From Guyanagaster necrorhizus (taxonomy: Eukaryota > Basidiomycota > Agaricomycetes > Agaricales > Physalacriaceae): a stretch of DNA of 64,000 nt. The position numbers and the translations under genes were made by a program. A model generated the notes under the pieces. The model searched no databases. It saw nothing but the letters and a program-made list of their open reading frames with translations, and was not told the DNA's origin. Positions 6,117-42,827 of the stretch are shown here, in pieces (the stretch's first letter is position 1; the number at the start of each line of letters is the position of its first letter). The DNA lies in the NCBI RefSeq assembly GCF_019112545.1, contig NW_025064896.1:689187-753186 (forward strand), in the 5' to 3' direction.

Positions 6117-6614
6117 TGTTACATGCATGCTACTGGCCTCTGTGTCACCTCAACCAACCACGAATCCAATCACACTACCCACTGGACTCTGACTGCTTCT
6201 CATTACCTACTAATTTCATTTCACCAGTATTATTTTACATCCATATTTCACATTGTAATATTTAGACTCTGAACTCGGTAATGAATACTGACACTGGAAT
6301 CCAATGGAACCTGACTCGGAATTAGCTACCATTAGTATATAAAGCCATGTACATCATTGTAGCTACTCAGTTCAAATATCAACTTGGATAAGCCATCTAC
6401 ACTTCACACTTGCCTCAACTCCTCCTTATCTCATCCATTGGATTCTGCTCTGAAGGATATTCCTGTTCACTTCTCTGATGGAACTCCATTCCACCCATCC
6501 AGATCCTTGAGCTCTGACTCAAGAGTGATGTTGCCAATAGCTTTGTCGACACCCACACACTCTGCCGGACTCTGTGCATGCACTCAAGCCTACTTGATTG
6601 GCACGTTCCTAACA
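6117..6614 (+). repeat. Element K 5' LTR
   Basis: 498 bp, TGTTACATG...CCTAACA. Same length as the 3' LTR. By-eye alignment shows transitions only, often TG in one copy against CA in the other. TATATAAA at 6336-6343 is the probable TATA box. Confidence 0.96.
6336..6379 (+). promoter_or_regulatory. K LTR promoter: TATA box and self-priming transcript start
   Basis: TATATAAA (6336-6343) lies 33 nt before AGTTCAAATAT (6369-6379). This second segment is complementary, apart from one CpG-type change, to the primer-binding site at 6617-6627, and in the 3' LTR (14247-14257) the match is perfect. The spacing fits transcription starting at the complementary segment. Confidence 0.7.
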
Positions 6615-6616
6615 GT

Positions 6617-6644
6617 ATATTCGAACTCAAACCCTTGAGTCGAA
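6617..6644 (+). other. K primer-binding site (self-priming) and adjacent hairpin
   Basis: ATATTCGAACT (6617-6627), two bases after the LTR, is the reverse complement of AGTTCGAATAT at the predicted mRNA 5' end. No TGG-type tRNA primer site is present. The same bases also form a stem, TTCGAACTCAA with TTGAGTCGAA and loop ACCC (6620-6644), conserved with compensating CG-to-CA/TG changes in B (about 54414-54443). Confidence 0.75.
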
Positions 6645-6653
6645 AATTTTATC

Positions 6654-8102
6654 ATGTCCACCACATTTACCAAACTCACAGAGACCGATCCCGAACAAAG
6701 ACAGCTCACCCATTCAAACATGTTTTCCATAGAAGACATTCCAGCCTCTGTCTCAAAGAAACAACCAGGCCTGTTTGGATCAGTCTCCAGTGAGGGACAA
6801 CCTTCCCATAGGGAAACCTACAATCACTCTAGCTTTACTGCCTGCTAACCTAATTATGACAATTCTCCTAACCCTTTCAACACCACCAGCATCCCAACCA
6901 ACAGGGTCCAACAGGCCAGTCTGATGTATAGCACCTGAACTAACCCTCCAATAGACCCCTTATCTCTGGGCAACAACCATGGGAATCCAGACAGCCCAGA
7001 CTCAGAGGGCAGAGATGAAGACACCCCTACTCATACTCCCATCTGATGGGAACTGGCTGGCAATCCACCAAACCCTCTCTCAGGTGGACCAGGAGAACCA
7101 GAGGGATCAGAAGGTCCAGGTGGTCCCAATGGCCCAAGCAGCACTGACGGCCCCACAGGAAGTAACAATCCAAACCAGCAGAACATGTTCCTAGAATTCA
7201 TGAACCTGTTACGAGGAGTCTCTGCCTCCCTCAACAACCCTAAACCAGCCACTGTCCATACTAAGGTCAAGGAACTAGAACCATTTGATGGCTTTGACTC
7301 TTGCAAACTGAAGGTTTTCATTGTCTCCCTTCAGTTGAACTTCAACGACAGACCTATCACATTTGCAATGGATGCTAACAAAGTTAACTATGCTATTTTA
7401 TTTCTGGCTGGCATCATGCTCAACTGGTTCAAACCAGACATTCTTAACCCTAATCTGCAGAATCTACCAGCCTGGCAATTCTTCTATGCAGCCTTCTTAG
7501 ATGAGCTTCATAGCAACTTCAGCCCTTTTGATGCTATCAGAGATGCTGAAGATGCATTAGAACACCTTCGGATGTGTGATAGAGATCAGATCATAAAGTA
7601 TATAGTCTAATTCAACCAGTATGCTTCACAAATTGGGTATGGAGATAACTCCCTCCACTATGCCTTTTACCGTGGCCTCTGCACCTGTATCAAGGATGAC
7701 ATGGCACACCATGGGAAGCCAAACAACCTTCATGATATGTGCTTCCTTGCCCAAGAACTTGATGCTCACTACTGGACCTGGAAGACCAAAATTGCCTGTG
7801 AAAACTGGGACAATAAATTCCCCAACCCCAAATCCAAGAGGTCTAGCACTTCTTCCTCAGACTCTAGCTCCACACTGAAATCTACCACCCCTAAGCCCTA
7901 TGCTGACAAGCTAGGCAAAGATGGCTGTCTTACTCAGGAAGAAAAAGACCGCTGGTGTCAGAACAACCTTTGCATATTCTGTGGAGCCAAACACAAGACC
8001 GAAGACTGCAACAAGCAGAAGGCAGCAGCCTCCACCAAGAGACATGCAGCAGAGGTCGACACCGCTCTCATGGAACTGGCCCCGATGGAGTCAGAAAACT
8101 AA
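6654..8102 (+). pseudogene. gag: Element K gag
   Basis: Gag packages the RNA in virus-like particles in the cytoplasm. The ATG at 6654 opens a frame of about 482 codons to TAA at 8100-8102. Order: a Ser/Thr-rich N-terminus, a low-complexity Gly/Pro/Glu stretch (about 7085-7165), the retrotransposon gag core (ELEPFDGFDSCKLKVFIVSL near 7270; FYAAFLDELHSNFSPFDAI near 7480-7540) and a zinc knuckle [13 protein letters not shown] (7971-8009, CX2CX3HX4C). A few in-frame stops (for example 6847 and the codon after IIKYIV near 7608) are the only breaks, all transition-compatible. Pol lies in the -1 frame and overlaps the gag end. Confidence 0.92.
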
Positions 8103-8590
8103 AAAGCAACCCTGTTCCCTTCATGCAAGTTCAGGGTTGCATTGACTGTATTCACACACTGGAGGTCATCACTCTCAATGCAACATCCCTTTCCAATCAC
8201 TCCTTCCACATTCCCCTCTCAGCAGAATTGCCAACTACTACAGAACCCGATGGTTCTTCAACTTGTATCATCCTACATTTTCTTGCCCTTATTGATTCTG
8301 GCTCTAGCCACTGCTTTGTTGACACTAAGTATGTAGCTGCCAATGAAATCCCCATTAAAACCATTCCTAGTATGCAACTTCGATTATTTGATAGCTCTAT
8401 CGGGAGCTGTATATCTCAAATCGCAACCATCCCCATCTGTTTCCCATCCAGAGACACTTTCTCCATCGACTTCTATGTCACTCCTCTAGATTCGTCTTGC
8501 AATCTTGTCCTAGGATACAACTGGCTCTCCCACTACAATCCACTAATTGACTGGGCTGAGAACAGTATCATTTTCTGCTCAAGCTACTAG
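8103..8590 (+). pseudogene. pro: Element K aspartic protease domain
   Basis: The frame is -1 relative to gag and is open upstream of the gag stop to 8590. The retropepsin catalytic triad is intact (ALIDSGSS near 8290) and the second conserved block [17 protein letters not shown] is near 8505-8555. It would process Gag-Pol inside the particle. The TAG at 8588-8590 ends the open stretch; RT continues in the same frame beyond it, so this is one nonsense codon in a longer pol. Confidence 0.9.
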
Positions 8591-11570
8591 GATCCCACTC
8601 CAACCAATTCCGCAGCCTCCACCACATTCCAGGGACTTCTGTGCCCACAGGACAACAGTCCACCCCTCTCTGAGCCTTCCAGCTCAAATCTGAGACTTCT
8701 GTGCCCACCAGACTCCACCAGTCCAACTCCCAGGGCTTCACTCCATTCCAAATCAACTCCAGGTAACTGGTAGACTCCATTTCCATATGAACCCATCTAC
8801 TTCTATCCTCCCTCAGAGTCTTTTACTATGAAAGCACATTCAAAGATCTCCATCATATTTGCTGCTGCATTTGTCTGAGCCAGTGCAAAAGAAGGTGCTC
8901 AGCAGTTCATACTGCAGTCTTCCTTGCCTAATATTGGAGCCAAAGCTGCATCTATGGAACCAGCAGATCTTTTACCAGTGCCAGTAGAGTACCACAATTT
9001 TGCAGACGTCTTCAGCAATACCCTCTCTGAAAAACTACCTGAACACAGGCCATACGACCTCAAAATCAATCTCAAGGAAGAAACCTCTCCATCGCTTGGA
9101 CCCATTTATTCTCTCTCAGAATCTGAACTCAAGGCCCTATGAGAGTTTATTGATGATAATCTGCACAATGAGTTCATTACTCCATCCCACTCTCTACATG
9201 GGGCTCCAGTTCTATTTGTCAAGAAAAAGACCAGTGAACTCTGACTTTGTGTCGACTACTGTGGCCTAAACAAAATCTCCAAGAAGGATCGCTACCCTCT
9301 TCCCCTCATTTCTGATCTCTTTGACTCTGCCCACTCTGTGTGCATCTACACTAAGCTCAACCTTTGGCATGCCTACCATCTTGTTTGCATAGCTAAGGGG
9401 GATGAATGGAAAACAGCCTTCTGGACCTGTTATAGTTCCTTCGAATAGCATATCATGCTTTTTAGCCTCACAAATGCTCTAGCAGCATTCCAACAATTTG
9501 TGAATGATATATTCTCTGACATGCTTGACATATCAGTAGTAGTCTACCTCGATGACATCCTTATATATTTCGACAACCCAGAAGATCACCAGAAACATGT
9601 TCGAGAGGTTCTACACAGGCTTAGAGCTAATGGACTCTATTGCAAAGGTTCCAAATGTGAATTCAACCAGGATTTCATGGAATATCTAGGCTATATCCTA
9701 TCACCTGAAGGACTTTGCATGTCTGAAGAAAAAGTCAAGGCCATTGTTGACTGGCCGGTGCCATGAAAAATCAAGGACATCCAATCTTTTCTTGGCTTTG
9801 CCAACTTCTACCATTGCTTTATACATGAATATAGCAATATCGTTCTTTCCCTTACATGACTCACCTGCAAGAGAACTCCATGGAAATTTGATGACAAATG
9901 CTTGGCTGCCTTCAATGAGTTGAAACAGGCTTTTACACATGCTCCCATTTTTACCCACTGGGTCTCCAATCGAAAGATAGTGGTGGAAACTGACACCTCT
10001 GACTATGCAATTGCAGCTATCCTCTCCATCTATCTTGAAGATGGCAAAATTCACCCCATCGCTTTCTGCTTCTGGAGCCTCCACAATGCTGAACTCAACT
10101 ATGACATCCATGACAAAGAGCTTCTAGCCATTTTTGAAGCCTTTAAACATTGGCAGCACTACCTTGAAGGCTCCACAGACTCCATCAATGTCATAACAGA
10201 CCACAAAAACCTTGAATACTTTGCCACCACCAAGATTCTAACCCACCGACAGGTCTGCTGATCCAAATACCTATCCCAGTTTAACCTAGTAATCCAGTTC
10301 TGCTCTGGAAAACTTAGTGGGAAACCGGATGTGCTCACTAGATGATGGGATGTCTACTCTAAAGAGGGAGATAGTCAATATGCCCAAATCAACCCCCACA
10401 ATTTCCAATCCATGTTCATCCAAGAACAACTCTCTGTGTCACTCCAAGCAATCTATCTTGAAGGCCCCACCCTATGGGCTAGTGCCATCATGGATATCGA
10501 CAAACTCCACACTGATATCAGATAAGCACAATCCTCTGATGCTATGTCCTCCGACAGCCTCCGCCAGGCCAAGGCCACTTCCGAATCCTCTCTCTCTCAA
10601 TGGTCTATTGACGAATCCAACATCTTTCACTTCGAAGGCTGCATCTACATCCCAGACTCTGATGATCTCCATCTCCATATACTACAGAACAATCATGACC
10701 ACATCTTGGCAGGTCACTTTGGTCAAAACCAGACATTAGAACTAGTCCAGTGGAACTACACCTGGCCAAAGATGCATGAATATGTCCGACACTATGTTAA
10801 GTCCTGCACAGTTTGTGGGCACAACAAGCCATCCAGACACTGCCCCTATGGGTTACTCAAACCTCTACCAGTTCCCGAATGGCCATGGGATTCTATTTCC
10901 ATGGACTTCATTGAACAACTACCGGACTCCAATGGATTCACCACCATCTTAGTAGTCATAGACTGAGCTAGCAAGCAAGCCATCTTTATTCCCACTCATA
11001 ACTCCATCAACTCCATGGAGCTCGCCCAACTTTTCCTTATCCATGTATTCTCCAAACATGGAATACCTAGTCACATCACATCTGACCATGGCTCTAAATT
11101 CTTCTTCCAATTTACTCGTGTCTTAGCCATGGCCCTTGACATGGAACTCCATCTTACCTCTAGTTATCATCTGGAGGCTGACAGCCAAACTGAACAAGCA
11201 AACCAAACTCTGAAACAATACATCTGCATCTACTGCTCCTACCAGCAGGACAACTGGGACACCCTCTTACCCATTGCTGAATTCACCTACAATAATGCCC
11301 CTAACGCATCCACTGGAATTTCCTCATTCTTCGCTAACAAGAGTTACCACCCTAACATCACTATTCACCCTGAAAGGGATATTGCCTCTGCCTGGGCCTG
11401 AGATTTCACGGTCAACCTTGATGAACTCCATCAATTACTGAAGGATAAAATTTCTGAAGCCCAGTCTTGCTACAAGACCCAAGCAGACAAGCATCAGATT
11501 CTGGCACCTCCGTTCACAGTGGGGAACAAGGTCTACTTCAGCTCCAAATATATCAAAACCACCTGCCTGA
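8591..11570 (+). pseudogene. pol: Element K pol: RT, RNase H, integrase core
   Basis: Single frame with scattered nonsense codons. RT: FADVFSN and RPYDLKINL entry motifs (about 8990-9080), APVLFVKKK, catalytic YLDD intact at 9545-9556. RNase H: VVETDTSDYAIAA and LNYDIHDKELLAIFEAF (about 9980-10145). Integrase: HHCC module (HDHILAGHFGQNQT, SCTVCGHNK, about 10690-10830), first Asp 10904-10906, second Asp 11084-11086, Glu 11192-11194 (D-x35-E). All catalytic residues I can place are present. Stops are mainly TGA replacing CGA (VID*ASKQ) and TGA/TAG replacing TGG (SFE*HIM). X copy 1 interrupts the integrase C-terminal region at 11570. Confidence 0.93.
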
Positions 11571-12979
11571 TGATATGCAGGCTACATGTCTAGCCCTATA
11601 ATTTGCAAATTCTGCATAACACACTAGAATATGCTAGTAACTGAGGATCATTAGCCAGTAGAGGACTATGGCTGAGGCTCCAAGCTGATAGTCATGCTAG
11701 TCACCAATACTAAGTCCAAAAGAGACTTTGTAAAATAACATGGCNNNNNNNNNNNNNNNNNNNNNNNNNNNNNNNNNNNNNNNNNNNNNNNNNNNNNNNN
11801 NNNNNNNNNNNNNNNNNNNNNNNNNNNNNNNNNNNNNNNNNNNNNNNNNNNNNNNNNNNNNNNNNNNNNNNNNNNNNNNNNNNNNNNNNNNNNNNNNNNN
11901 NNNNNNNNNNNNNNNNNNNNNNNNNNNNNNNNNNNNNNNNNNNNNNNNNNNNNNNNNNNNNNNNNNNNNNNNNNNNNNNNNNNNNNNNNNNNNNNNNNNN
12001 NNNNNNNNNNNNNNNNNNNNNNNNNNNNNNNNNNNNNNNNNNNNNNNNNNNNNNNNNNNNNNNNNNNNNNNNNNNNNNNNNNNNNNNNNNNNNNNNNNNN
12101 NNNNNNNNNNNNNNNNNNNNNNNNNNNNNNNNNNNNNNNNNNNNNNNNNNNNNNNNNNNNNNNNNNNNNNNNNNNNNNNNNNNNNNNNNNNNNNNNNNNN
12201 NNNNNNNNNNNNNNNNNNNNNNNNNNNNNNNNNNNNNNNNNNNNNNNNNNNNNNNNNNNNNNNNNNNNNNNNNNNNNNNNNNNNNNNNNNNNNNNNNNNN
12301 NNNNNNNNNNNNNNNNNNNNNNNNNNNNNNNNNNNNNNNNNNNNNNNNNNNNNNNNNNNNNNNNNNNNNNNNNNNNNNNNNNNNNNNNNNNNNNNNNNNN
12401 NNNNNNNNNNNNNNNNNNNNNNNNNNNNNNNNNNNNNNNNNNNNNNNNNNNNNNNNNNNNNNNNNNNNNNNNNNNNNNNNNNNNNNNNNNNNNNNNNNNN
12501 NNNNNNNNNNNNNNNNNNNNNNNNNNNNNNNNNNNNNNNNNNNNNNNNNNNNNNNNNNNNNNNNNNNNNNNNNNNNNNNNNNNNNNNNNNNNNNNNNNNN
12601 NNNNNNNNNNNNNNNNNNNNNNNNNNNNNNNNNNNNNNNNNNNNNNNNNNNNNNNNNNNNNNNNNNNNNNNNNNNNNNNNNNNNNNNNNNNNNNNNNNNN
12701 NNNNCAATTTGGTGTTGATCCTAAGTCCTAATTATACTTAAACATTGCTATAAACTACTCTCATGAGTATTGCATCTTTGAAAGCAAGATAGAGTTGAAT
12801 AACTGTCTTTATTGACTGCCCCTTTGATTTTATTTAAGACTGCAAGAGTGCTTCTATTGTACTTGAAACAACCAACCTCAACTGTATTTGGTGATTGTGT
12901 ATTGAGTGGTTAGATTGGTGATTGAGAGTTCATCCCTCATTTGCCTCTCTTAGTCACTTAGCCATTACCAAGCACATCA
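11571..12979 (+). mobile_element. X copy 1: LTR-like repeat with internal assembly gap
   Basis: Starts TGATATGCAGG, ends AGCACATCA (short TGAT/ATCA inverted ends) and matches X copy 2 at 47644-49048 on both sides of the N run. It sits in K pol with a short duplication (ctga before, ccga after; one C/T difference). Size and termini suit a solo LTR of a long-LTR element that I do not recognise. No coding sequence is seen. Confidence 0.85.
11745..12704. other. Assembly gap (960 N)
   Basis: Run of N inside X copy 1. The matching interval in X copy 2 (47819-48771) is 953 bases, so the gap size is realistic and its content is probably X interior. Long X-only translations through this run are artefacts. 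Confidence 0.99.
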
Positions 12980-13409
12980 CCGACCAGAAAATTTTCAGAG
13001 AAATACCTTGGTCCTTTTGAAATCATAGCCCAACCTGGTACCCACTCCTTTACCCTGAGGCTTCCATCAGACCTCCAGTCCATTCACCCTGTCTTCCATA
13101 TGTCACAATTGGAACCCATAGAAGAAAACACCATTCCTAACCGAATCTAACCACCACCACCTCCAGTTGAAGTTGACGGAGAAGAACATTTCGAAATAGC
13201 CCAAATTCTCAACTCTAAACTGGACCGCCAGTTCTGCTGCCCACTGCTGTACAAAATCCAGTGGCTAGGCTATGAAGGTACCAACGAAGAATTTGCTTGA
13301 TTATCGGCCTCCGAGTTCTCCGCTGATGAATTTATTGAAGAATTCCACCACCGATATCCAGACAAACCAGGACCCTTGTCCAAAGTTATTCAAACATCCC
13401 ATTCCTAAT
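12980..13409 (+). pseudogene. pol: Element K pol C-terminus: integrase tail and chromodomain
   Basis: Resumes after X. A GPY/F-like segment (FSEKYLGPFEIIAQPGTHSF, about 12995-13055) is followed by the hydrophobic SQLEP region and a chromodomain (HFEIAQILNSKLD, LYKIQWLGYEGTNEEFA, ADEFIEEFHH; about 13185-13355). It ends at TAA near 13407. Two nonsense codons are visible (after PNRI, and TGA for Trp after EEFA). The chromodomain would bind modified histone tails and target integration to heterochromatin, which fits the nesting seen here. Confidence 0.88.
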
Positions 13410-13584
13410 ACAGTGCTACTCTGGACACCACCAACACCCCACCTTACCATTTTAATTCTAACCACTAATTACCACTGTTCAATCACCCTTTCTAGATTCT
13501 CAAAGTCAAAAAATTTTGCATTTATATTTTTGTCCACCACCAACATCCGACACCCTTTTCTATATACATTTTGTACAAAATATT

Positions 13585-13880
13585 TTACAAAGAAGCAGAA
13601 TCTGACAGGCCCACACCAGAAGCCAAACCTCCTCCCTCTTCCTCTCCAACTTCTCCCTCTGCTCCTTTCTCCATGTCTCCTGGGCCACATGGTCCACTCA
13701 GACCCTTTCCTCCTGCTCCTGCTCCCCTTGCTATTCCAAATGGCTCTCCACAGCCTCTGCATATTCTTCCTCCATGGTTTGCTATTCTAGACAAAACAAT
13801 TCTGTGGCCTTCAGGGCCATCAGAGGTGGATCCCCTCACCAAAGGCTTGGGAGTGCATGAGCGATGACATAGGTGAAGAT
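13585..13880 (-). pseudogene. Antisense ORF remnant in K (core deleted)
   Basis: Minus strand, between pol and the 3' LTR of K. It aligns with the two ends of the antisense ORF of B: an N-terminal part with MEEEYAEAVESHLE and KLERKREE, and the C-terminal GLSDSASL followed by the conserved TAA (13585-13587). About 1 kb that B has in between, including the cysteine cluster, is missing at a junction near 13630. A 2-base loss also shifts frame upstream of MEEEY. The remaining 13410-13584 and 13881-13982 hold no other feature I can support. Confidence 0.65.
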
Positions 13881-13982
13881 GGTGGTTTTAGATCAAGCTG
13901 AAAAAACTCCTATGGCCACCAACAATCTTCCATGTGGCCCCACCGGCCATCAGAATCTGTGCTCTTGAGGGCAAGAATGCTA

Positions 13983-13994
13983 AGAGGGGGATAC
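13983..13994 (+). other. Element K polypurine tract
   Basis: AAGAGGGGGATAC abuts the 3' LTR. This is the expected plus-strand primer site. Confidence 0.75.
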
Positions 13995-14492
13995 TGTTAT
14001 GTGCATGCCACTGACCTCCATGTCATCTCAACTAACCGTGAATCCAATCACACTACTCATCAGACTCTGACCACTTCCCATTACCTACTAATTTCATTTC
14101 ACCAGTATCAATTCACATTTGTATTTCACATTGTAATATCTAGACCTCGAACTTGGTAACGAATACTGACACTGGAACCCAATGGAACCCAACTCAGAAT
14201 TAGCTACCATTAGTATATAAAGCCATATACATTATCATAGCTACTCAGTTCGAATATCAACTTGGATAAGCTGTCTACACTTCACACTCGCCTCAACTCC
14301 TCTTTATCTCATCTGTCAGATTCCACTCTGAAGGATATTCCTGTTCACTTCCCTGATGGAACTCTGTTCCACTCTTTCAGATTCTTAGGCTCCGACTCAA
14401 GGGTGACATTGCTAATAGCTTTGTCAATGCCCACACACTCCATCAGACTCCACATGTGCACTCAAGCCTACTCGATTGGCATGTTCTTAACA
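13995..14492 (+). repeat. Element K 3' LTR
   Basis: 498 bp, TGTTATGTG...CTTAACA, followed by the duplicated gggtt. It contains AGTTCGAATAT (14247-14257), a perfect 11-nt complement of the primer-binding site at 6617-6627. Confidence 0.96.
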
Positions 14493-14497
14493 GGGTT

Positions 14498-30572: not shown

Positions 30573-31177
30573 CAATCCTATATCCTTTAACAGTCTCCAC
30601 TAGGCCAAGGCTACTTTTGAATCCTCTCTCTCTCAGTGGTCTATTGATGAATCCAACATCCTTCACTTTGAAAGCCATATCTATGTCCTGGACTCTAACA
30701 ATCTCTATCTCTGTATACTACAGAACAGTCATAACTATATCTTAGCAGATCACTTTGGTCAAAACTAGATATTAGAACTAGTCCAGCAGAATTACACCTG
30801 GCTAAAGATGTGTGAATATATTTAATACTATGTTAAGTCCTGCATAGTTTGTAGATGCAATAAGACACTTAGACACTGCTTCTATAGATTACTCAAACCT
30901 CTACTGGTTTCTGAATGACTATGGGATTCTATTTCCATGAATTTACCACCATCCTAGTAGTCATGGACTGAGCTAGCAAGCAAGCTATCTTCATTCTCAT
31001 TTATGATACCATTAACTCCATAGAGCTCACTCAACTTTTCCTTATCCATGTCTTCTTTAAACACAAAGTATTCAGTCACATCATATCTGATTGCAGCTCT
31101 GAATTTATCTCCCAGTTCACTCATGCCTTAGCTACCACTCTTAACATAGAACTCCACCTTACTTCTGATTATCATCT
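30573..31177 (+). pseudogene. pol: Element B pol fragment: integrase zinc module and start of core
   Basis: Continues B after L: the QWSIDESNI segment, HHCC module (VKSCIVCRCNK-like near 30830-30860) and the core up to the codon where M inserted (TSDYHL). A 31-bp deletion near 30937 removes the first catalytic Asp region and shifts frame. Dense in stops, CpG-poor. Confidence 0.85.
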
Positions 31178-31709
31178 TATTATGATTTTTCCTATTTTCT
31201 TTTCTTTTTCCTTGATTTATTTGGGATTGACTCCTATTTCTGCTTAGTCAGAGTGCCTAAACCTGGCACTCAAGATCATGGAAATGCTTAGTCATCAGCA
31301 CTGCCCTGATTCTGGTTGCTGCTGTAAAGTCACACAACAGCCCAATGACAGAGAAGTCTCTCTTATCTTTGTGCAGCAGTAACAGCAGTAACAGCACAAC
31401 AGCAGGATAATACTTTTTGTAGGTATCTTAGCAATGCTAGACAAAATGCTACACAGCACCAGCAAAGACAATTAGGTAGTTATATTCTTGAAATGATAAG
31501 ACTTTAATATTTAAGCAGTGTAGCTCTTGCTGTAGTAACTCCAGCTTCAAGCTAAAGTTTATTCTCCACCATCTTATCTCAAGCAACTTGTAACTGCCTT
31601 GATCACATAATGCCAACAACACATCAGTGGACTCTGATAGTATAACTCAAAGTGCAAGGTTCTATCAGTTTATCACGTATTATTAGTCATGTGAAATTTG
31701 GGCTTAACA
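31178..31709 (+). repeat. Element M 5' LTR
   Basis: 532 bp, TATTATGATTTTT...GGCTTAACA, nearly identical to 39349-39880. It contains a CAG/CAA-rich stretch near 31372-31405 that is part of the LTR in both copies. Confidence 0.95.
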
Positions 31710-31710
31710 A

Positions 31711-31723
31711 TTAGCTCAAAGCT
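31711..31723 (+). other. M primer-binding site (self-priming)
   Basis: TTAGCTCAAAGCT, one base after the LTR. The LTR start segment reads AGCTTCAAGCTAA near 31545, differing at the central dinucleotide only (CA against TG, both from CG). Confidence 0.75.
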
Positions 31724-31974
31724 TCTGGCTTCCCTTTCTCAAGCTCAATTGTGCTGAGAAACTGAATGCCCCCTGCACTTAATCCTTTCAACCCAAACTT
31801 TACTCACAAGTTCTTTAAACTCTTGGCTTCTATTATAAGAATCTTGATCAGTCTATTGGTGATCATACAGCTATGCTGTAGACACTAATTGATCACTGCT
31901 TGAGCAATCAGGCATTATCAAGAGTTTCAATGTATTTGAACCATCCTCTACAATATCACCAGACCTCTCTCTCT

Positions 31975-34900
31975 ATGACATCCCTGCCTCTGCCCAACAG
32001 TCCTTCTGACCTGCAGAAGGACCCAGCTCTAAAAATGTTTCTGAGAGCTCAACTGAAGAATATCCTAGAGAAGAAGAGGAGCAGCATCAGCAGCACACAT
32101 ACCCCTCACAACCTCTATCTGCAGTTGTCTGAGACCCTGGAAACCCTTGGGCTACAGGGTTTCAATGACTCAGACCTGACACTTCCATTCTGTCTCCTGA
32201 GCACAATATTCCAGCAATGAGGACAACAACCTCTATCCCTAGCACTGGCATTGGGCACTGTGCGAGAGACTCTTTTGATGCCCCATGGATGGCTTGAGAG
32301 GCCAGAAATTTCATGGGCCATGGATCCTGATGAACCATGTCAATATGAAGTAGCAGCATTGACCACAGATCAGAGGTTGGAAGCAACTCTTATTTCAACA
32401 ATAACAGTGACAAGTGCCAGTACTGGCAAGCTGCTGCCAGAAAAGCTGACTGGCTGGAGCACTGCACAGCTAGTGGTAATACTAGCTGAACAGGGGGTGT
32501 ATGAATGGTTCCAGGAACAACACAATCAGCCAGTAACATTACTCTGGTCTTCTCTCAAGAGGACTAAGTTTGACATGCCCATAACATTTTCAAGTATCTC
32601 CAGAAGCAGGCATGTATTGATGATGAGATCACAAGAGAGAACACCCTCTTTGGATGGTATCTCTGAGCATGAGAGGCAGTTGAGTGGAGAAGTAACTGAA
32701 CTAGTACACTTGTTGGTACTACTACCAACAGTGTATCTGACACTCCATTCCAGAAATCTAGCACTCCTGCCACCAAGCCTGATTCCTGGGCAGAACCATC
32801 TAACGAGGTCATCCACATAGACAATGCCCACCAGAGGGCATCACTCGATCTTGACAATGACCATCTACTATCTTATGGGACTGATACTATCACAGAAACT
32901 GATGATATCTTTTTCAGGAGAGATGGGATACTGACAGACAGAGAAACTATCAGAGAAGATGATGAGGGTATTGACCTCACAGGTGATATTCAAAGGTTTC
33001 TCAATGGGAACTTTGCTGCCCTTTTTCTCAACCTGTGGTTCTATCGAAACTTCTGCCAGTATCACAGAGCAATAGCAGCAGCAACAGCAAGAGAAGAGGA
33101 CAAGAAGTAGCAAAGACAGTCTAAGCAGCAGCCTACTCTTTGACCCAGACCCAATGATATCAGACCTAGTATGCAGCCTCAGCATGGCCATCTCAGAGAT
33201 CTATGACCTATGTGACAGTTTCCTCCTTGAGGAAGACACAGGCAGTGAGACCACCAGTGGAGATATAGATGACAAGGAGAAAAAGGATCCTGATGAGGAA
33301 GTTGAGATCCCTCAGACTGACTGAGCCAGTATGTAGGACATACAAATGCATGAAGAAAAGATGAAGAAACTGGCACAGAAGGCATGCTAGAAGGACTTTA
33401 TGGAGTTGTACCAAGATAGTACAACTACACTATAGATGGATGACACCTGGTTGGTGTCACCCATAAGATAAAGGTATACCACCACCGACAGGATTGAGCA
33501 CATGGAAATTTTGTAATATGCAGCTACTGAACAGGCTATTTTTATTTATAATAAAAGATATTTAGGACATCAAATGCAGGCATTGCCACCATACAGCCTG
33601 AAGTATGGCTCAACACCAAGACTATGGATGCTGAGTGTTGTGCCGAGCAAACTGGTCAATATGGCACCTATGATCTGAATAATATCATCAAAATATTCAT
33701 TCACCACCTTGGCTGTCTGCAGTACAGCATCTCAGCTTTCTAGAAGCTGACTCCAGCTGAGTAGCCACTACCTGAACCTATGGAGGTTGCTGATTCAGCA
33801 ATCTTTTGCTAGACAGCCACCATCAGATAAAGCTGAAGGCAGCAGAGGGGAAAAGGCATCTGAAGAGCCTCTTTCCACAGAAGATGACTCTATGGCTATT
33901 GCTCAGGGTTGGACTGTCAAGAATGGGCAGATCATGCAAAAGGAAGTTCTATCACCAGAAAGTCCTATTGCTGATGATGGTTTCCTCTATTCATTCTCAG
34001 GACCTCTGCCAGCATGGATAGTCCTGCCTGCTGGCAGGATCCTGAACTCTATAGCTATGCTTACCACTGACACTCAAATTCTTAATATGAAGCTGACTCT
34101 TGTGAGTGAGCCATGTTTCTTCAAAAGACAGTCAGACAATATCGATCACTTTCTTATCAACTGTGATCAATATTTCCAAGTATTTGCCTCATACTTTCTT
34201 CTCAATATGTACAAGGTAATCTTTGCCACCACTCACATATCAGAGAAGGCCAAAACTTGATGGATCTTGATCTCTCCCATGTTTTGGTCAACCACATAGT
34301 CACATCACTGGTATCCCTTATGGCTGATCTTCAAATAAATGATCATTAACAAATTCACAGACCTAGCTGTCCAAGAAGTCCACAAGCAGAGGATAAAGGA
34401 CTTCAAGATAGGAGATAAGCCAGCCATCAATTACTTTGATGAGTTAGAGTGACTCAGCAAACTTGCTGGGGTCTAGGACAACACATCCAACACTGGTAGA
34501 ATAGTCAAATACATGAAGATGAGGGCTCTATCCTCTTATCTTAAGATCATCTCTGACATTGGTCATGGTATTCTGGTCAGGTATGACAAATGGAAGACAT
34601 GCATCATTACAATGTATAAAGAGCAGCAATGACAAAAGGCAGAATTGGCCACCCTATCATAGGAAGGCCACAAGAATCAGAGACAGAGCTTGAAGCCCTC
34701 TACCTCCAATGCAACCACACCTGCTAAGCCCAGAGGCTTGGCCTCAACTTTCTCATATAGTAAGAAGTGAACCAGTATGAGCATGATATATACTGAAATG
34801 AGTCAATCTATAAATGTGAATCACCTCCAGAAGGAGAGAAAGTGTTTCAATTGTGGCCAGAAGAGCCACATGGCATGGGACTGCCTCCAGAAGAAGAACA

Positions 34901-34998
34901 AGTGCACTCATGAAGACATACAGGCACAGCTCACAGAGTTGATGAAGGAAGACAAAGACCTCAGGCAGAATGATAAGCCCAAGGAGGTAAAAGACTGA
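31975..34998 (+). pseudogene. gag: Element M gag
   Basis: ATG at 31975 (MTSLPLPNSPSD), aligned with the J start. One frame of about 1,007 codons to TGA at 34996-34998. Long Ser/Thr/Pro and Gln-rich N-terminal half, core (DNIDHFLINCDQYFQVFASYF near 34140-34200; INYFDELE near 34425) and zinc knuckle CFNCGQKSHMAWDC (near 34846-34887). Open stretches of 106, 189 and 157 codons survive between stops. Pol follows in the -1 frame. Confidence 0.9.
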
Positions 34999-35900
34999 GC
35001 TGAGCAGTGAGTGACTCTACTGGCTCAGTCAAACTAACAAAGAGTGGACTGTCACCTTCAGCCATTGAATAGACTGACTTTATTTTTGTAGTACCACCCT
35101 CTATGCTTAAATTATGCATGCATTTGAATATATCTGACAGTACCACTCATCTATTGGAATTGCCTAAGGAATCAAAACAGGAATCTCAACTGTCAATGAA
35201 TAGCTGAACAAGGGCAGAGAGCTCTCAAAAAGGTAAATCATCACTTAACATTCATCAAGCTAACAAACTAATAGAAACTCAACCATTTGTGGGCCAAACT
35301 GGGGCAGAGGGCTCCATTGGCTGGCTAAAACCATTCAACACTGAATGGACTTGGTGAGCTATCAAAGACATGAAGAATGAGGCAGTGGCAAAAGCCATAC
35401 TCAAGAATTGAGTATACAAGACCCAAGCCAAAGAGGTGATCAATGATATGATCACCAAGATGTGAGAGACTGAACAATGTCAGGCTTTGGAGTGGCTCAA
35501 TGAATTGCATGGACTGTAGAAGTTCATACAATGATCCAAGACCTTGGACCAAAACCTACTGGCCAAAGCCCAAATAGAGACTCTTACATCTCACAGTACC
35601 CATATGGTCACAGCACTAATTGATAGTGGATGCATGGGAAGCTCAATTAACTGTACTTTTATCAATAAGCATGGACTTCTGACTCAAGCAATGACTGCTC
35701 TAATTCCTGTATATAATGCAGATGAAACAAAGAACCAAGCCAGTTCAATCACTGAATATGTCAAGCTTAGACTCACCATCAGTGATCATTCAGAACAGAT
35801 CAACTTGGCAGTAACTGACTTAGGAACCAAGGAAATATTTCTTGGTCATAATTGGCTGATCCAACATAATCCGCTAATCAATTAGATAACTGGATGCATC
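34999..35900 (+). pseudogene. pro: Element M pre-protease spacer and protease
   Basis: Spacer with the TEWTW-RAIKD-like segment near 35345, then ALIDSGCMGSS (intact D-S-G triad near 35620), PVYNADETKNQASSI and EIFLGHNWLIQHNPLIN (about 35835-35880). Frame -1 relative to gag. One open run of 113 codons (35544-35885). Confidence 0.88.
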
Positions 35901-37530
35901 ATTTTTGCAAGATGCCGATGTCAAAAGATCTCATTCAAGTTATCTGATGAGAACCTCAAAGACTGATGGGATGAAGAAATGGAAGATGGAGAGATGATTC
36001 TCACTGTCAACCTACAGAAGGCTATTCATATTCATGCCATACACCATGTGAACAATCTAGTGGCAAGAGCCAATGCTGAAAAGGAGAAGAAAACATTTGA
36101 GGAAATAGTATCTGAATGAGCATGAGACTATGAAGACTTATTCAACAAGGAAATTTTTGATGAATTACCTGAATTGAAACTCTGGGACCATGCTATAGAA
36201 TTGATTTCCAATGCAAATACCAATCTGGATTGCAAAGTTTATCCACTTGGCAACAACAAAGAACAGGAACTAGACAAGTTCCTTGATGAAAACTTATCTA
36301 GTGGATGGATCTGACCATCAAAGTCACCAATGGCTTCACTCTTCTTCTTTGTTAAAAAGAAGGATGAAAAGCTCCAACCAGTATAAGATTATCAGAAGCT
36401 CAACAAAATGATGATCAAGAATCATGATCTGCTTCCTTTAATCTCAGAGTTGATGGACAAACTCTGAGGCACCAGATACTATACTAAATTGGATATTCAG
36501 TGGGGATACAACAATGTGTGCATCAAAGAAGGCAACAAATGGAAGGCCACTTTTCAAACTAACTGTGATTTGTTCAAACTGACAGTTATATTCTTTGGAC
36601 TCATCAATTCATCAGCAACCTTCCAGTGGATAATGAACAACATCTTCAAGGATCTCATTGCCACTGGAAAGGTCATGATCTACTTGGATGACATTCTTAT
36701 TATATTCAAGACCAAAGAAGAACATTGATGCTTAGTATGACAGATACTAGTGTTGATGAGGAAGCATCAGCTTTTTCTCAAAGCTAAGAAGTGTGAATTC
36801 GAGATACTCAAGACTGAGTATCTCAGAGTCATTATCAGCAAAGGAAGCATCAGAATGGACCCTGTCAAAGTGGCAGGAGTAACTGAATGGCTGAAACCAA
36901 CTAAGAAGAAGGAACTGCAATCATTCCTTGGATTCACCAATTTCTACCAATGGTTCATCTGAGATTACAGCAAAATAGTCTGACCTATGATGCAATTGAC
37001 TGAGAATGCCCCATGGATCTGGGGATCTTCCTAACAGGCAGCATTCAATGACTTTAAATGCCAATTATCCAAAGATGTTGTCTTGGCAATACCAAGCCAG
37101 GATGGCAAGTTTTGAATAGAGGCTGATTTGAGTGAAGGTGCTATCGAGGCAGTCCTCTTTCAGGAGCAAGACAGCAAATGGCAGCCAGTTGCATTTTTAT
37201 TAAAAGCACTGACTGTCACAGAATGAAACTATGAGATCTACAACAAGGAACTCCTTACTATAATACTCACCTTAGCTGAATGGCAGCATTATCTCATCAG
37301 AGCAGTCTAGGTCTTTGAGATCTAGACAGATCATCAGAATCTCCAATACTTCTGACTCTCTCAGAAGCTTAACCACCAATAAGCCTGATGGGTCATAGAA
37401 TTATCTGAATATAAATATACATTACACTATAAAGCTGGTGCAGCAAACAAGAAGGCTGATTTCCTCAGCTGCAGAGTGGACTATGACCAGGGGGGAACCA
37501 ACAATGAAGGAGTTGTATTATTTCAACTAG
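35901..37530 (+). pseudogene. pol: Element M pol: RT and RNase H
   Basis: Pre-RT segment (KKTFEEIVSE, IFDELPELK), palm with KLDIQWGYNNVCIKEGNKW, catalytic YLDD intact (KVMIYLDDILII near 36670-36705), thumb (KKELQSFLGFTNFYQWF near 36900-36960), RNase H (ETMRSTTRN-type frames and IYNKELLTIILTLAEWQHYL near 37235-37290; KKADFLS near 37450). Same frame as protease. Several stops. Confidence 0.9.
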
Positions 37531-39316
37531 AACACTTCTGAGCAATGATCATGCCCACCAAAGAGGAAGTACATAAGCACATCAAGAGTGCTATCTAAGA
37601 TCTCTACAAGTGGGATCAAAGAATTGCCCCATCACTCAACCATGAGTGGAGACTAAAGAAAGAAGGGGAAATGATCTGCTATGATAGTCAGATCTATATC
37701 TCAAGGGATCAGGGACTTTATGGTGATATCATCACCACATGTTATGATCATGTGACTGCTGGACACTCTGGGATTGCTAAAATGAAGAAACTAGTCTTGA
37801 GGGAGTATTGGTGATCCAAAATAGACTATGATATCATCTGATATGTCAAAGCTTGTGAGGTTTGTCAGTGCAGCAAGATCTCAACACAATCCAGAGCAGC
37901 TCCACTCCATCTGAATGAGGTTCCTTTATTACCATGGATCCACATTTCAGTGGACATGATAATCAGACTTTCCAAAAGCGATAGCTATAATGCAATCATC
38001 ATCATAGTTGATCACTTCTCAAAGATGATCATTCTGATCACTTGTTCAACAGAGTTAATATCAGAAGGATGGGTGAAAATCTTATGAGATGAGGTTTATA
38101 CCAAGTATAGTATATCTCAAATAGTGATTTCAGACAGAGGTCCATAATTCATCTCTAAATTCTTAGACAACTTATATCGACTCCTTAATATTAAACGGAA
38201 TGTCTTAATGATATATCACTCACAGACAGATGGCCAGACAGAACAAGCGAATCAAGAAATTGAAAAGTACCTTTGACTTTTTATTAACTACAGACAAGAC
38301 AATTAAACAGAGTGGCTAGCCCTAGCTGCTTTCTAACACAATAATAGGATTCATTCAGCAACTGGCAAAACTCCATTTTTCATAAACTATGGGCAACACC
38401 CTCTAGTCACCCAAACTGACCAAAAACACATGACAACCCCAGCATTCACAAATTTTGCCAAGAAAATAGCAAAAATACATAGAGAAACAAAGATAGCTCT
38501 CAAAAAGGCTGCTTCAATAATAAAAAAACAGTATGACAAACATCAGAAGCCCACTCACAAGTACTCAATAAACAACAAGATTTGGTTGGACACCACCAAC
38601 CTTCATCTTCCATATCCAAAGCAGAAACTGGCAGACAAATGAATGGGACTATTCAAAGTTATTGCTAAAGTTGGCAACTTGGAAGATTCATAATGTCTTT
38701 AATGAGGCATTATTAACACCATATGTCATATGTCATGCTCACCTTTCCAAACCAAGAATGACCATCACTGCCATTACCAAAACTTATCAACAATAAAGAA
38801 TATTATAAAATTGATAAAATTCTAAATCATAAATATCAAAAAATCAAAGCATAAGGCAGAGGTATGAAAACAACCATTGACTATCTAGTCAGCTGAAAAG
38901 GCTACAGACTAAAATCAAACCAATCAGTCAATGAAAAATATATAGACATAGAGAAAGCAATACATGACTATGAACAGTGAAGTAACAAGGTTGACATGGG
39001 CAAATACATTGACCTAAATTTTAAAGCCAATGAAGACTACCAGTAGAGGATATGTTCAATATTATACTCTGCTGAGTCACAATATCTGCAAATTATCAAG
39101 GTGACAAATAGGATACACAGTGAAGAGCAATGTCCAAAACATTTTCTGACTAGCAAAACAGAAATGGGTGGCAGTGCAGCAAATAAGGCAACAACTACAG
39201 TGTCTATCACTGCTTTATGTGCAAAACACATTGGCCAATACAGAGTCATATTTAACATTATAGGTCCAGCAGATAGGCTATCTGTGACTGGCCAGAAGGA
39301 TTTATCTCTAAATTAG
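37531..39316 (+). pseudogene. pol: Element M pol: integrase and chromodomain with extra C-terminal block
   Basis: Integrase zinc module (YDHVTAGHSGIAKMKKL, ACEVCQCSK near 37740-37880), core (VDMIIRLSKSDSYNAI near 37955; SDRGP near 38125; [10 protein letters not shown] near 38228), then KIWLDTTNLHLPYPK and a chromodomain (TTIDYLVS near 38870 to HDYEQ near 38980). In J, L and E the protein ends LSLN directly after this point. Here about 320 bp intervene (38982-39301) before KDLSLN-stop at 39314-39316, in a different frame that is open for 71 codons. Confidence 0.85.
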
Positions 39317-39348
39317 CCATCAGGACAATGGTCTTAAGAAGAGGGTAA

Positions 39349-39880
39349 TATTACAATTTTTTCTATTTTTTTTTCTTTTTCCTTGATTTATTTGGGATTG
39401 ACTCCTATTTCTGCTTAGTCAGAGTGCCTAAACCTGGCACTCAAGATCATGGAAATGCTTAGTCATCAGCACTGCCCTGATTCTGGTTGCTGCTGTAAAG
39501 TCACACAACAGCCCAATGACAGAGAAGTCTCTCTTATCTTTGTGCAGCAGTAACAGCAGTAACAGCATAACAGCAGGATAATACTTTTTGTAGGTACCTT
39601 AGCAATGCTAGACAAAATGCTACACAGCACCAGCAAAGACAATTAGGTAGTTATATTCTTGAAATGATAAGACTTTAATATTTAAGCAGTGTAGCTCTTG
39701 CTGTAGTAACTCCAGCTTCAAGCTAAAGTTTATTCTCCACCATCTTATCTCAAGCAACTTATAACCACCTTGATCACACAATGCCAACAACACATCAGTA
39801 GACTCTGATAGTATAATCTGAAGTGCAAGGTTCTATCAGTTTATCATGTGTTATTGATCATATGGAATTTGAGCTTAACA
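39349..39880 (+). repeat. Element M 3' LTR
   Basis: 532 bp, TATTACAATTTTT...GAGCTTAACA, preceded by the polypurine tract AAGAAGAGGGTAA. Confidence 0.95.
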
Positions 39881-40707
39881 TATCTGGAGGCTGATGGACA
39901 AACCAAATGGGCAAATCAAACTCTAAAACAATACATCCACATCTACTGCTCCTACCAGGAGGACAACTGGGACATCCTCTTATCCATTGCTGAGTTTGCC
40001 TACAACAACACCTCTAATGCATCCACTGGAATTTTTCTGTTCTTCACCAATAAGGGTTACCACTCTAATATCACCATTCATTCTGAAAGAGACATCACTT
40101 CTGCTTGAGTCTGAGATTTGCAGTTGATCTTGATGAACTCTATCAAGTATTAAAAAATGAAATCTCCAAAGCTCAGGCTCACTACAAGATCCAAGTGGAC
40201 AAGCATCAGATTCCAGCATCCCCATTCACAGTGAGTGACAAAGTCTACCTCAGTTTCAAATATATCAAAATAACCTGCCCAATCAAAAAATTCTCAGAGA
40301 AATACCTTGGTTCTTTTAAAATTATAGCCCAATCTGGTTCTCACTCCTTCATGCTGAGGCTTCTGTCAGATCTCCAGTCTATTCACTCAGTCTTCTATGT
40401 GTCACAATTGGAACCCATAGAAGAAAACACCATTTTTAACTGAATCCAACTATTGCTGCCTCTAGTTGAAATTGATAGAGAAGAATATTTCAAAATAGCC
40501 CAAATCCTTAACTCTAAGCTGGACTGTTGATTCCACTACTCACTGCTGTACAAGAGCCAGTGGCTAGGCTATGAAGATACCAATAAAGAATTTGCTTGGT
40601 TATTGGCCTTCAAGTTCTCCACTAATAAATTTATCAAAGAATTTCACTATTGATACTCAGATAAATCAGGACTCTTATCTAAAGTCATTCAAACATTCTG
40701 TTCTTAA
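39881..40707 (+). pseudogene. pol: Element B pol C-terminus: integrase end and chromodomain
   Basis: Resumes at the codon where M inserted: EADGQTKWANQ carries the region of the catalytic Glu, replaced here by Lys. It continues through SIAEFAYNNTSNAS, FSEKYLGSFKIIAQSG (about 40300-40345) and a chromodomain (YFKIAQILNSKLD, WLGYEDTNKEFAWLLA, about 40485-40620), ending at TAA 40705-40707 as in K. One frame change near 40110. Confidence 0.9.
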
Positions 40708-40881: not shown

Positions 40882-42141
40882 TTACAGTGAAGTGGCATCT
40901 GATAGGCCTGCATCAGAACTCAAACACTCTCTCTGCTTCTTTAACTTCTCTATATCCTCACCCAGCCTCTTCAATATTGCCTCTCAAAGATTCTCTGCCT
41001 TTTGATCTCTTTCATCCTTGAAAATCAGTTGGGTCTTCTTTCAGACCTCTACTTTAGATTCCAAAAACAGCTTCAAGAGAGATGCTATATCATTAGAATT
41101 ATAGTCATCCTAGAGATCTGCTATAGTACTATAGATATCTGCCAGCTCTTTCACCAACTTGTCTATATAATGCATTAACTTGCAAATTAATTTTGAAATT
41201 TGATGGAGGCTAGTAAAGACCTTCACACTACTGATCACCTCACTTGCAGTGACATTCTTATTGAATGAACAGATGGTTTTCTTGATCTTGCAGCAAGCAC
41301 AAGTCCACCTTTAACTGGCATCTTTGGTTATCAATCATATGTAATACTATGCACTATTTTGATGACAGTGCATACAGCTTTCTGAAAACAAAGCTAAGTC
41401 AAACCATGCAGGAATACTAAGACACTTACTTTCATTATCCAACAACTCTTTATCCTCTGCTAGCCCTGCAACTTTCAACTTCACCTGTTTTTTGAGACTA
41501 GCAACTATCTCTGTCCCACTGCTATTCACTACACTCCTTGACCTGAATTTGTGTTTATGGCCTCTCTCTGCTGAGCCTGTCACCCTCTTCTTATCTTCTT
41601 GCACCTTTCTCCTCCTCTCCAAAACTCCCTCAGACCCCTTATCCAGCTCACCTTCAGACTCCATTAAGGTATGACTGGCTATTTTTTTGAAATAGAGACT
41701 GAACTCAGAATCAAACTGAGCTATCAGAACTTGTTACAGCCTGAAATTGATAGCCTCTGCAGGAGTCACTTGTAATTCACTTTCTATAACCATCTCCTCC
41801 TACCTTACTTCTGAAGCTGCAGCCCTCACCATAGCCTCTGCAGCCTCTCTCTCTTCAGCCTTCCTTTGAGCTGCTTCTCTCAATGCCTTCTCTGTCTCCT
41901 TTGCTTGCCTCTCTACTGCTTGCTGAATCTCCTCTCTCTTCCTCTCCAACCTCTCTTGCTGCTTATTTCTTCATGTCTCTCAGGCCACATGATTCATCTA
42001 GACTTTCTCCTTCTACTCTTGCTTCTTTTTCTACTCTAAGTGGACTTCTACAGCCTCTGTATATTCTTCCTCCATGGCTTGCTATTTCAGATAGAATAAG
42101 TCCTTGGCCTCTTTAGGGCCATCAGGAGTGGATTCCCTCAT
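40882..42141 (-). pseudogene. Antisense accessory ORF in element B with Zn2Cys6-like cluster
   Basis: Minus-strand frame of 420 codons between pol and the 3' LTR, opposite to gag-pol, from ATG 42141 (an upstream start is possible) to TAA 40882. About 14 stops interrupt it, all transition-compatible, and the frame never shifts. Order: N-terminal MEEEYTEAVE region; a Glu/Arg/Ala-rich coiled-coil stretch (about 41960-41820); a basic patch GHKHKFRSRS (near 41550); a cysteine block CX2CX6(Y)X14CX2CX6C (41376-41269), which is the Zn(II)2Cys6 spacing with one Cys codon reading Tyr; then two amphipathic helices (SKLICKLMHYIDKLVKELA; LKRLGEDIEKLKKQ). The C-terminal GLSDATSL-stop is shared with K. Fungal Zn2Cys6 domains bind DNA; a regulatory or genome-binding role here is inference. 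I do not recognise the protein family. Confidence 0.7.
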
Positions 42142-42327
42142 CAAAGACTCAGAAGTGCATAAACAATAATATATGATGAGAGACAATATAGTTGTAAAAG
42201 TTTAGGTGATGATGGTGGTATCAGATCAAGTTGCAAAACTTCTCACAGCCACCAACAATCTTCTATATAGCCCCATCAGCCATCAGAATCTGCACTCTTA
42301 AGAGCAAGAACACTAATGAGGGGCTAC

Positions 42328-42827
42328 TGTTACATATATGCTGCTGGCCTCCATGTCACCTCAACCAACCATGAATTTAATCACTAAAACCTGTCAGACT
42401 CTATCCACTCTCTATTATCTGTTAATTTCATTTTTATTATTATCATTTCACATCTGTATTTTATATTGTAATATCTAGACTCCAAACTTGATAGTGAATA
42501 TTGACACTGGAATCCAATGGATTCCAACTTAGAATTGGCTACTATTAGTATATAAAACCATGTATAATCATTGTAACTACTCAGTTTGAATATCAACTTG
42601 AATAGCCATTTACACTTCATGCTCACTTCAACTTTTTTCTATCTCATCCATCAGATTCTACTCTGAAGAATATTCCTCTTCACTTCTCTGATGGAACTCT
42701 ATTCTGTCTATCTAAATTCTTGGGCTCTGACTCAAGAGTGATGTTGCCAATGGCTTTGTTGATGCCCATGCACTCTGCTGGTCTCTACACATGCATGAAG
42801 ATCCAGTCAATTGGCATGTTTCTAACA
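42328..42827 (+). repeat. Element B 3' LTR (GyB)
   Basis: 500 bp, TGTTACATATATG...TTTCTAACA; partner of the inverted LTR at 54446-54945. The right flank gtgat starts C's integrase and does not match caagt at the 5' end. Confidence 0.93.

What the first reader, a model, noticed from the sequence alone, without database searches (positions are those of the whole stretch)
40882..42141. Antisense 420-codon frame in a Gypsy element encodes a Zn2Cys6-like protein
Seen: between pol and the 3' LTR of B, on the strand opposite gag-pol, one frame stays aligned for 420 codons with about 14 stops but no frameshift. It carries a coiled-coil-like Glu/Arg stretch, a basic patch, a CX2CX6(Y)X14CX2CX6C block and two amphipathic helices, and shares its C-terminal end and stop with K. 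Known: antisense ORFs between pol and 3' LTR are described in plant Tat/Ogre Gypsy elements; Zn2Cys6 clusters are typical of fungal regulators. Inference: the element carried an antisense gene for a DNA-binding protein, perhaps for self-regulation or captured from the host. I am not aware of this in fungal chromoviruses.
Basis: partly seen in the sequence, partly recalled or inferred. Interest (0 to 1): 0.88.

Follow-up and report, generated by a model that had tools for sequence, protein, structure and literature searches.

The report
Spliced antisense gene in fungal retrotransposon
A family of jumping elements in a likely fungal genome carries, on the strand opposite its replication genes, an extra protein-coding gene that natural selection has kept, that is likely spliced through one short intron, and that is predicted to make a zinc-binding nuclear protein which would regulate the element itself.

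Summary
The minus-strand frame at 40882-42141 is one decayed copy (14 internal stops) of a gene present in well over a hundred copies in this genome. Its layout in B is exon 1 42189-41430, a 48-nt intron 41429-41382, exon 2 41381-40882. The intron keeps GT...AG in 51 of 51 aligned copies and varies from 47 to 54 nt; 39 of 51 lengths break the frame. Frameshifting indels are 9.6 per kb per copy in the intron, 0.2-0.4 in the exons (first 24 nt excluded). This minus-strand frame is the constrained one: transversion dN/dS 0.31 (0.26-0.37) between random copies, 0.75-1.77 in the other five. Nine of 51 copies have both exons open, four of them with ATG in frame. Six cysteines (CX2CX6CX14CX2CX6C) are each kept in 45-49 of 51 copies, followed by a heptad helix, but Pfam Zn_clus scores far below cut-off: "Zn2Cys6-like" holds, membership does not. 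Antisense genes in fungal chromoviruses have a precedent (Boty/brtn). The conserved intron, measured selection and six-cysteine protein were not found reported in the held library. Transcription, splicing, zinc and DNA binding are untested.

The parts
42187..42189 (-). position of the family's predicted start codon (ATG letters in 34 of 51 copies, in frame with the exon-1 end in 22; ATA in B)
41430..42189 (-). exon 1: Glu/Arg/Lys-rich helix, acidic stretch, predicted nuclear localisation motif of the form PKKxxKLEV; 8 internal stops in B
41382..41429 (-). predicted spliceosomal intron, GTAAGT...TTTTCAG, 48 nt
40882..41381 (-). exon 2: CX2CX6CX14CX2CX6C block (Cys3 is Tyr in B), heptad helix, acidic C-terminal helix, stop TAA; 6 internal stops in B
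42328..42827 (+). 3' LTR of element B (TGTTA...TAACA); 138 bp lie between it and the antisense start
39882..40704 (+). end of B's pol after a nested insertion; end placed by alignment to copy L021; SH3_Tf2-1 in the open piece 40087-40440
30575..31177 (+). upstream part of B's pol, cut off by the nested insertion

Best explanation
The frame is a decayed copy of a two-exon gene carried antisense to gag-pol, between pol and the 3' LTR, by a chromovirus-type Gypsy family of a likely fungal genome; selection has kept its coding sequence, its intron is likely spliced out of an antisense mRNA, and the protein is predicted to be a nuclear six-cysteine dimer that would bind the element's DNA and regulate its transcription. 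Shown: position, orientation, many copies, strongest constraint in that frame, conserved GT...AG intron with free length, conserved cysteines and lysines, heptad helix. Inferred: antisense transcription starting in or next to the 3' LTR; splicing; translation from ATG; zinc binding; nuclear entry; dimerisation; DNA binding; feedback on the element (dampening or timing of sense transcription, as HBZ does in HTLV-1). The intron can persist because the packaged genomic RNA is the sense strand, in which it cannot be spliced.
For: Transversion steps by codon position 77:46:120 over 51 copies. Transversion dN/dS 0.31 (0.26-0.37, 25 random pairs) and 0.52 (0.37-0.80, 25 nearest pairs) in this frame; 0.69-1.96 in the other five over both pairings. 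Intron GT...AG in 51 of 51 copies, lengths 47-54, 39 of 51 not a multiple of three; frameshifting indels 9.62 per kb per copy in the intron, 0.39 in exon 1 from nt 25, 0.20 in exon 2 less the stop. Genome-wide 179 exon1-intron junctions and 0 spliced junctions, up to 3 mismatches each, as expected if the spliced antisense mRNA is never reverse transcribed. Both exons are open in 9 of 51 copies, with ATG in frame in 4 of these. Six Cys kept in 48, 45, 45, 48, 49 and 47 of 51 copies; heptad helix p 0.0005. RT, RNase H, integrase and Tf2-1 SH3 domains on the sense strand.
Against: No RNA evidence of any kind. PF00172 far below cut-off; with cysteine columns fixed, shuffled profiles reach up to 20.5 against the real 20.1, so similarity beyond spacing is weak. 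The Cys codons are no better kept than Lys, Leu, Phe or Tyr codons. One sense frame is also below 1 (0.75, 0.62-0.92 and 0.69, 0.51-0.99); its third positions are those of the antisense frame, which can explain it. The pairs are not fully independent, so these intervals are too narrow. 19 of 51 copies have a 17-18-nt deletion at the start that removes the ATG or puts it out of frame, in 14 clades of a midpoint-rooted FastTree tree, young copies among them, so the product may not be needed in cis or the start may lie elsewhere. In the 12 of 51 copies with 48-, 51- or 54-nt introns the frame stays in register unspliced.
Confidence: 0.55

Rival explanations
1. The antisense gene is real and spliced, but its six-cysteine protein is not a DNA-binding regulator: it works on RNA or protein, for example nuclear import, packaging or RNA export, or blocks a host silencing factor.
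For: No Zn_clus match above cut-off; no relative of known function; the basic residues lie mainly in the second cysteine half (CKIKKTAC), unlike the textbook cluster (recalled).
Against: Spacing fits the Zn2Cys6 rule, all six Cys align with host Zn clusters, and the order cluster, linker, heptad helix is that of Gal4-type regulators (recalled).
Confidence: 0.3
2. Only the antisense RNA matters (dsRNA or antisense silencing of the element) and the frame is a by-product.
For: Antisense silencing is discussed for plant elements (PMC7264820, passages); a paper on antisense transposon-derived long noncoding RNAs in the fungus Blumeria hordei came up (PMC10648671, listing only); 19 of 51 copies have the start region deleted.
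Against: Codon-position bias and dN/dS 0.31 in exactly this frame; indels rare in exons and common in the intron.
Confidence: 0.06
3. The coding strand is the sense strand (an env-like extra ORF) and the antisense frame is its mirror.
For: A sense frame of 369 codons is open in one young copy, L050; sense frame 1 has dN/dS 0.75 (0.62-0.92) and 0.69 (0.51-0.99), below 1.
Against: The antisense frame has 0.31 and 0.52; third positions of the antisense frame vary most and second positions least; the GT...AG intron reads on the minus strand. The 369-codon sense frame is not shown to be the one with dN/dS below 1.
Confidence: 0.02
4. A passenger gene captured from the host and carried without benefit to the element.
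For: An intron in a retroelement fits capture of genomic DNA; Zn-cluster genes are common here (39 matches).
Against: Constraint between copies across subfamilies; no relative in the protein set; none of the 39 Zn_clus matches coincides with one of the 150 listed exon-2 matches.
Confidence: 0.07

Closest known systems
Boty-like Gypsy elements of Botrytis cinerea with the antisense gene brtn (Zhao 2011; not held, seen as citation and mention in passages of PMC7264820, PMC8365987, PMC4227169)
   Same: Fungal LTR element, gag-pol reported with a CHROMO domain, extra antisense gene between pol and 3' LTR.
   Different: No sequence of brtn was available to compare; whether brtn has an intron or a cysteine cluster is not stated in the passages seen.
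Plant Retand, Grande and RIRE2 antisense ORFs (PMC11963269 and PMC7264820, passages)
   Same: Antisense ORF between pol and 3' LTR, kept in most copies; TRP28 predicted to bind DNA; Grande protein nuclear.
   Different: Non-chromovirus lineage in the case of Retand, other protein domain, longer pol-LTR region in Retand; the word intron does not occur in either main text.
HTLV-1 HBZ (PMC1459196, passages, abstract included)
   Same: Spliced antisense gene expressed from the 3' LTR; nuclear; inhibits transcriptional activation; the model for the mechanism proposed here.
   Different: bZIP protein (recalled and listed); splicing joins an LTR exon over 1.4-1.5 kb, not a 50-nt internal intron; expression is proven there and not here.
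Fungal Zn2Cys6 regulators (Gal4 type, PF00172)
   Same: CX2CX6C-X14-CX2CX6C spacing followed by a heptad helix.
   Different: Below the Pfam cut-off; cluster in the C-terminal half of the protein; basic residues mainly in the second half of the cluster.

Membership tests
Fungal Zn2Cys6 cluster (PF00172) | Six cysteines with spacing CX2CX6CX5-16CX2CX6-8C (rule recalled) | tested here: met
   CX2CX6CX14CX2CX6C, each Cys kept in 45-49 of 51 copies
Fungal Zn2Cys6 cluster (PF00172) | Score above the curated Pfam cut-off (21 bits) | tested here: not met
   7.2 bits, E 7.2, in 1 of 13 scanned pieces (9 of the 13 span the block); not listed for the other 12
Fungal Zn2Cys6 cluster (PF00172) | Profile similarity to Zn clusters beyond cysteine spacing | tested here: inconclusive
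   hhalign probability 13%, E 0.0022 against 20 of the genome's 39 Zn_clus matches; score in the box 20.1 against 13.7 +/- 3.0 (max 20.5) with Cys columns fixed and 8.7 +/- 1.7 (max 13.0) with all columns shuffled, 40 shuffles each
Fungal Zn2Cys6 cluster (PF00172) | Binds two zinc ions and DNA | not testable with these tools
   needs protein
Chromovirus (Ty3/Gypsy) | RT, RNase H and integrase of Ty3/Gypsy type | tested here: met
   RVT_1 1.2e-22, RT_RNaseH_2 2.3e-12, rve 5.4e-9, SH3_Tf2-1 2e-13 in copy L021; in B itself only SH3_Tf2-1 6e-12 was tested
Chromovirus (Ty3/Gypsy) | Chromodomain at the integrase C-terminus | tested here: inconclusive
   PF00385 E 3.6e-5 to 4e-4 in 3 of 4 pol ends, 20.7-24.0 bits, under the 25.1 cut-off
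[quoted passage not shown]
brtn homologue | Sequence similarity to brtn | not testable with these tools
   paper and sequence not held
HBZ-like antisense regulator (works like) | Spliced antisense mRNA from the 3' LTR | tested here: inconclusive
   splice sites conserved in 51 of 51; no RNA data

The most novel reading that the evidence does not exclude
A fungal retrotransposon encodes its own Gal4-like transcription factor: a spliced antisense gene, expressed from the 3' LTR like HBZ of HTLV-1, makes a dimeric zinc-cluster protein that reads sites in the element's LTRs and sets the balance between sense and antisense transcription, in trans for all copies. It would be an HBZ-like circuit evolved independently, built from a fungal-type DNA-binding module, with an intron that marks the antisense strand as messenger and never as genome.
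Probability: 0.35. Interest if true: 0.82.

Novelty: new variant of a known kind. Interest (0 to 1): 0.62.

Why it matters
Antisense genes in LTR retrotransposons have been noted in plants and in Botrytis, but their function is described as unknown (PMC7264820). Here one genome holds copies with open exons, a measurable selection signal and a built-in splice reporter: the 49- and 52-nt introns put the exons out of frame, so detection of the spliced antisense mRNA would show that the gene is expressed as a protein-coding message. It makes the question whether retrotransposons regulate themselves through antisense proteins directly testable in a fungus.

Tried and rejected
Relatives of the protein: three searches of the 5.8-billion-protein set (at E 0.001; at E 1) gave none; this set may hold few fungal proteins, so absence there says little. 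PDB by profile: nothing below E 0.33. Pfam on 13 antisense pieces: no family above cut-off. None of the 39 Zn_clus matches in the genome coincides with the 150 listed exon-2 matches. Raw transition counts were set aside because CpG is absent in B (observed/expected 0.0) and CpG decay would mimic or hide selection; hence transversions only. The first indel count for exon 2 was wrong: in 41 copies the aligner put a gap inside the stop codon; one search corrects it and also leaves out the first 24 nt of exon 1, where 16 copies have a 17-nt and 3 an 18-nt deletion. Rows dropped: 3 of 54 copies (L027, L042, L055) from the 51-copy alignment for an insert, poor coverage or masked bases; 5 of 40 (L027, L042, L044, L045, L047) from the first alignment. 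Alignment A1 held one row from a wrong coordinate (L061) and was replaced by A2. A second, 5' intron ending at TTTTTTCAG upstream of the ATG was considered by eye; no donor stood out, so it is not claimed. Structure prediction was not tried: the loci came by a route that the tool does not list as admitted, and B itself has three stops in the cysteine block. A comparison of young copies with the start deletion (6 copies, dN/dS 0.86) and without it (7 copies, 0.14; two of these have ATA) uses overlapping pairs and few changes and is only a hint. Paper searches in the held library listed no report of an intron-bearing or zinc-cluster antisense gene in a fungal Gypsy element; the listed papers were judged by title and abstract start except the five read in passages.

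Full report
What is there. The minus strand of window 42141-40882 reads 420 codons with 14 internal stops and no frameshift. The same sequence recurs across the genome: 44 matching stretches from 40 scored of 267 candidates by DNA, 150 listed matches each for an exon-2 and an exon-1 piece (287 and 411 candidates), and 179 matches to the exon1-intron border with up to 3 mismatches, 0 to the reversed control. I fetched 53 copies from these lists and with B aligned 51 of 54 (three dropped). The 14 copies were chosen for long open frames, so the share of open copies below is not a genome-wide rate.

The element. B's sense strand carries the end of pol with a Tf2-1-like SH3 domain, ending near 40704 by alignment to copy L021, about 180 bp from the antisense stop. 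L021 has reverse transcriptase, RNase H and integrase, and the pol ends of 3 of 4 younger copies show a chromodomain below the Pfam cut-off. The 3' LTR is 42328-42827. In copy L057 the antisense stop and the pol stop are also about 180 bp apart, tail to tail, so the gene does not overlap pol. B's pol is interrupted by a nested insertion at 31178-39880 bounded by 532-bp direct repeats that are 95.9% identical.

A likely spliced gene. Just before the cysteine block, on the minus strand, B reads GTAAGT...TTTTCAG over 48 nt (41429-41382). All 51 aligned copies keep GT...AG, 49 keep GTAAGT, 35 end in CAG and 16 in TAG; lengths are 49 (29 copies), 52 (7), 51 (7), 48 (3), 50 (2), 54 (2) and 47 (1), so 39 of 51 break the frame unless the stretch is removed. 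Frameshifting indels against copy L059 number 25 in the 52-nt intron, 15 in 763 nt of exon 1 (from nt 25) and 5 in 497 nt of exon 2 (less the stop) over 50 copies: 9.62, 0.39 and 0.20 per kb per copy. In B the intron happens to be a multiple of three, which is why it passed as coding. When the two exons of one present-day copy, L059, are joined at these sites the frame is open for 428 codons from ATG to TAA. In 9 of 51 copies both exons are free of stops, and 4 of these 9 have the ATG in frame. No spliced junction is found in the genome with up to 3 mismatches: an antisense mRNA would not be reverse transcribed as genome, so the intron stays. Splicing itself is inference; no RNA was seen.

Selection. 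Transversions were used because CpG sites are absent in B. Over a FastTree tree of 51 copies transversion steps at codon positions 1, 2 and 3 are 77, 46 and 120 (p 4e-8), with the same order in each exon. For comparison, transversion steps per column are 0.28 at third positions, 0.23 in the intron, 0.21 upstream of the start and 0.51 downstream of the stop. Transversion dN/dS is 0.31 (0.26-0.37) for 25 random pairs and 0.52 (0.37-0.80) for 25 nearest pairs; the other five frames give 0.75-1.77 and 0.69-1.96. One of these, sense frame 1, is also below 1 (0.75, 0.62-0.92; 0.69, 0.51-0.99); its third positions coincide with those of the antisense frame, which can account for it. Pairs share branches, so the intervals are too narrow. 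The frame with the lowest value is the one whose phase continues across the intron. Mirror-ORF and chance explanations are therefore unlikely.

The protein. Exon 1 encodes a Glu/Arg/Lys-rich helix, an acidic stretch and a PKKxxKLEV-type basic motif that resembles known nuclear localisation signals (recalled). Exon 2 encodes CX2CX6CX14CX2CX6C; the cysteines are kept in 48, 45, 45, 48, 49 and 47 of 51 copies and 23 of the 24 losses are Cys to Tyr, a single transition. Their mean conservation (0.92) exceeds the average codon (0.77; six random codons reach it in 1.7% of draws), but Lys, Leu, Phe and Tyr codons are kept as well or better, so this is not a sign specific to cysteine. The helix after the block has heptad periodicity in L059 (p 0.0005). 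Pfam Zn_clus is listed for 1 of 13 pieces, 9 of which span the block, at 7.2 bits against 21. hhalign against 20 of the genome's 39 Zn clusters puts all six cysteines in register with probability 13% and E 0.0022; shuffling the other columns shows that spacing carries most of that score. The protein thus looks like a Zn2Cys6 regulator but is not filed as one. No homologue was found in the protein set.

Start codon. ATG letters stand at the family start in 34 of 51 copies, in frame with the end of exon 1 in 22. In 19 copies a 17-18-nt deletion lies over the start region, scattered over 14 clades; in 10 of these an ATG remains but none is in frame. It is probably slippage between two near repeats (by eye). 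Six young copies with this deletion show weaker constraint than seven without it (0.86 against 0.14; few, overlapping pairs). This suggests, weakly, that the ATG is the real start and that the product can act in trans.

Known precedents. [quoted passage not shown] Retand's TRP28 proteins are predicted to bind DNA. In fungi, Boty of Botrytis cinerea carries the antisense gene brtn (Zhao 2011, cited; paper not held), and a Boty-like gag-pol with a CHROMO domain is described in PMC4227169 (passage). HTLV-1 HBZ is a spliced antisense gene from the 3' LTR whose product inhibits transcriptional activation (PMC1459196, passages). The kind is therefore known; the conserved intron, the six-cysteine protein and the measured constraint are what I could not find reported in the held library.

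Verdict. A real, conserved, intron-bearing antisense gene in a chromovirus-type element (confidence about 0.9 for this part); DNA-binding self-regulator as mechanism, about 0.55.

Noticed in passing
window 31178-39880: A nested insertion of about 8.7 kb bounded by 532-bp direct repeats (95.9% identical) sits inside B's pol; the flanks share about 4 bp when aligned to K. Sense-strand features in this stretch belong to the insert, not to B.
   Followed up: partly
window 6117-14493: Element K has both LTRs (84.4% identical), a withheld stretch read as N near 11.75-12.70 kb, and an antisense gene with about 1 kb deleted, including the intron and the cysteine block.
   Followed up: partly
window 40882-42141 and L009: CpG is completely absent (observed/expected 0.0) in these two, while two other copies keep some (0.15 and 0.37; four copies examined): strong CpG-directed decay of repeats.
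   Followed up: partly
L050, L053, L056, L058, L060, L061 and 13 other copies, start of exon 1: A recurrent 17-18-nt deletion over the start codon in 19 of 51 copies, spread over 14 clades, likely slippage between near-direct repeats; no copy with it keeps the ATG in frame.
   Followed up: partly
L050:1012-2118 (coordinates on the reverse complement): A 369-codon frame open on the sense strand, mirror of the antisense exon 1; the antisense frame has the lower dN/dS.
   Followed up: partly
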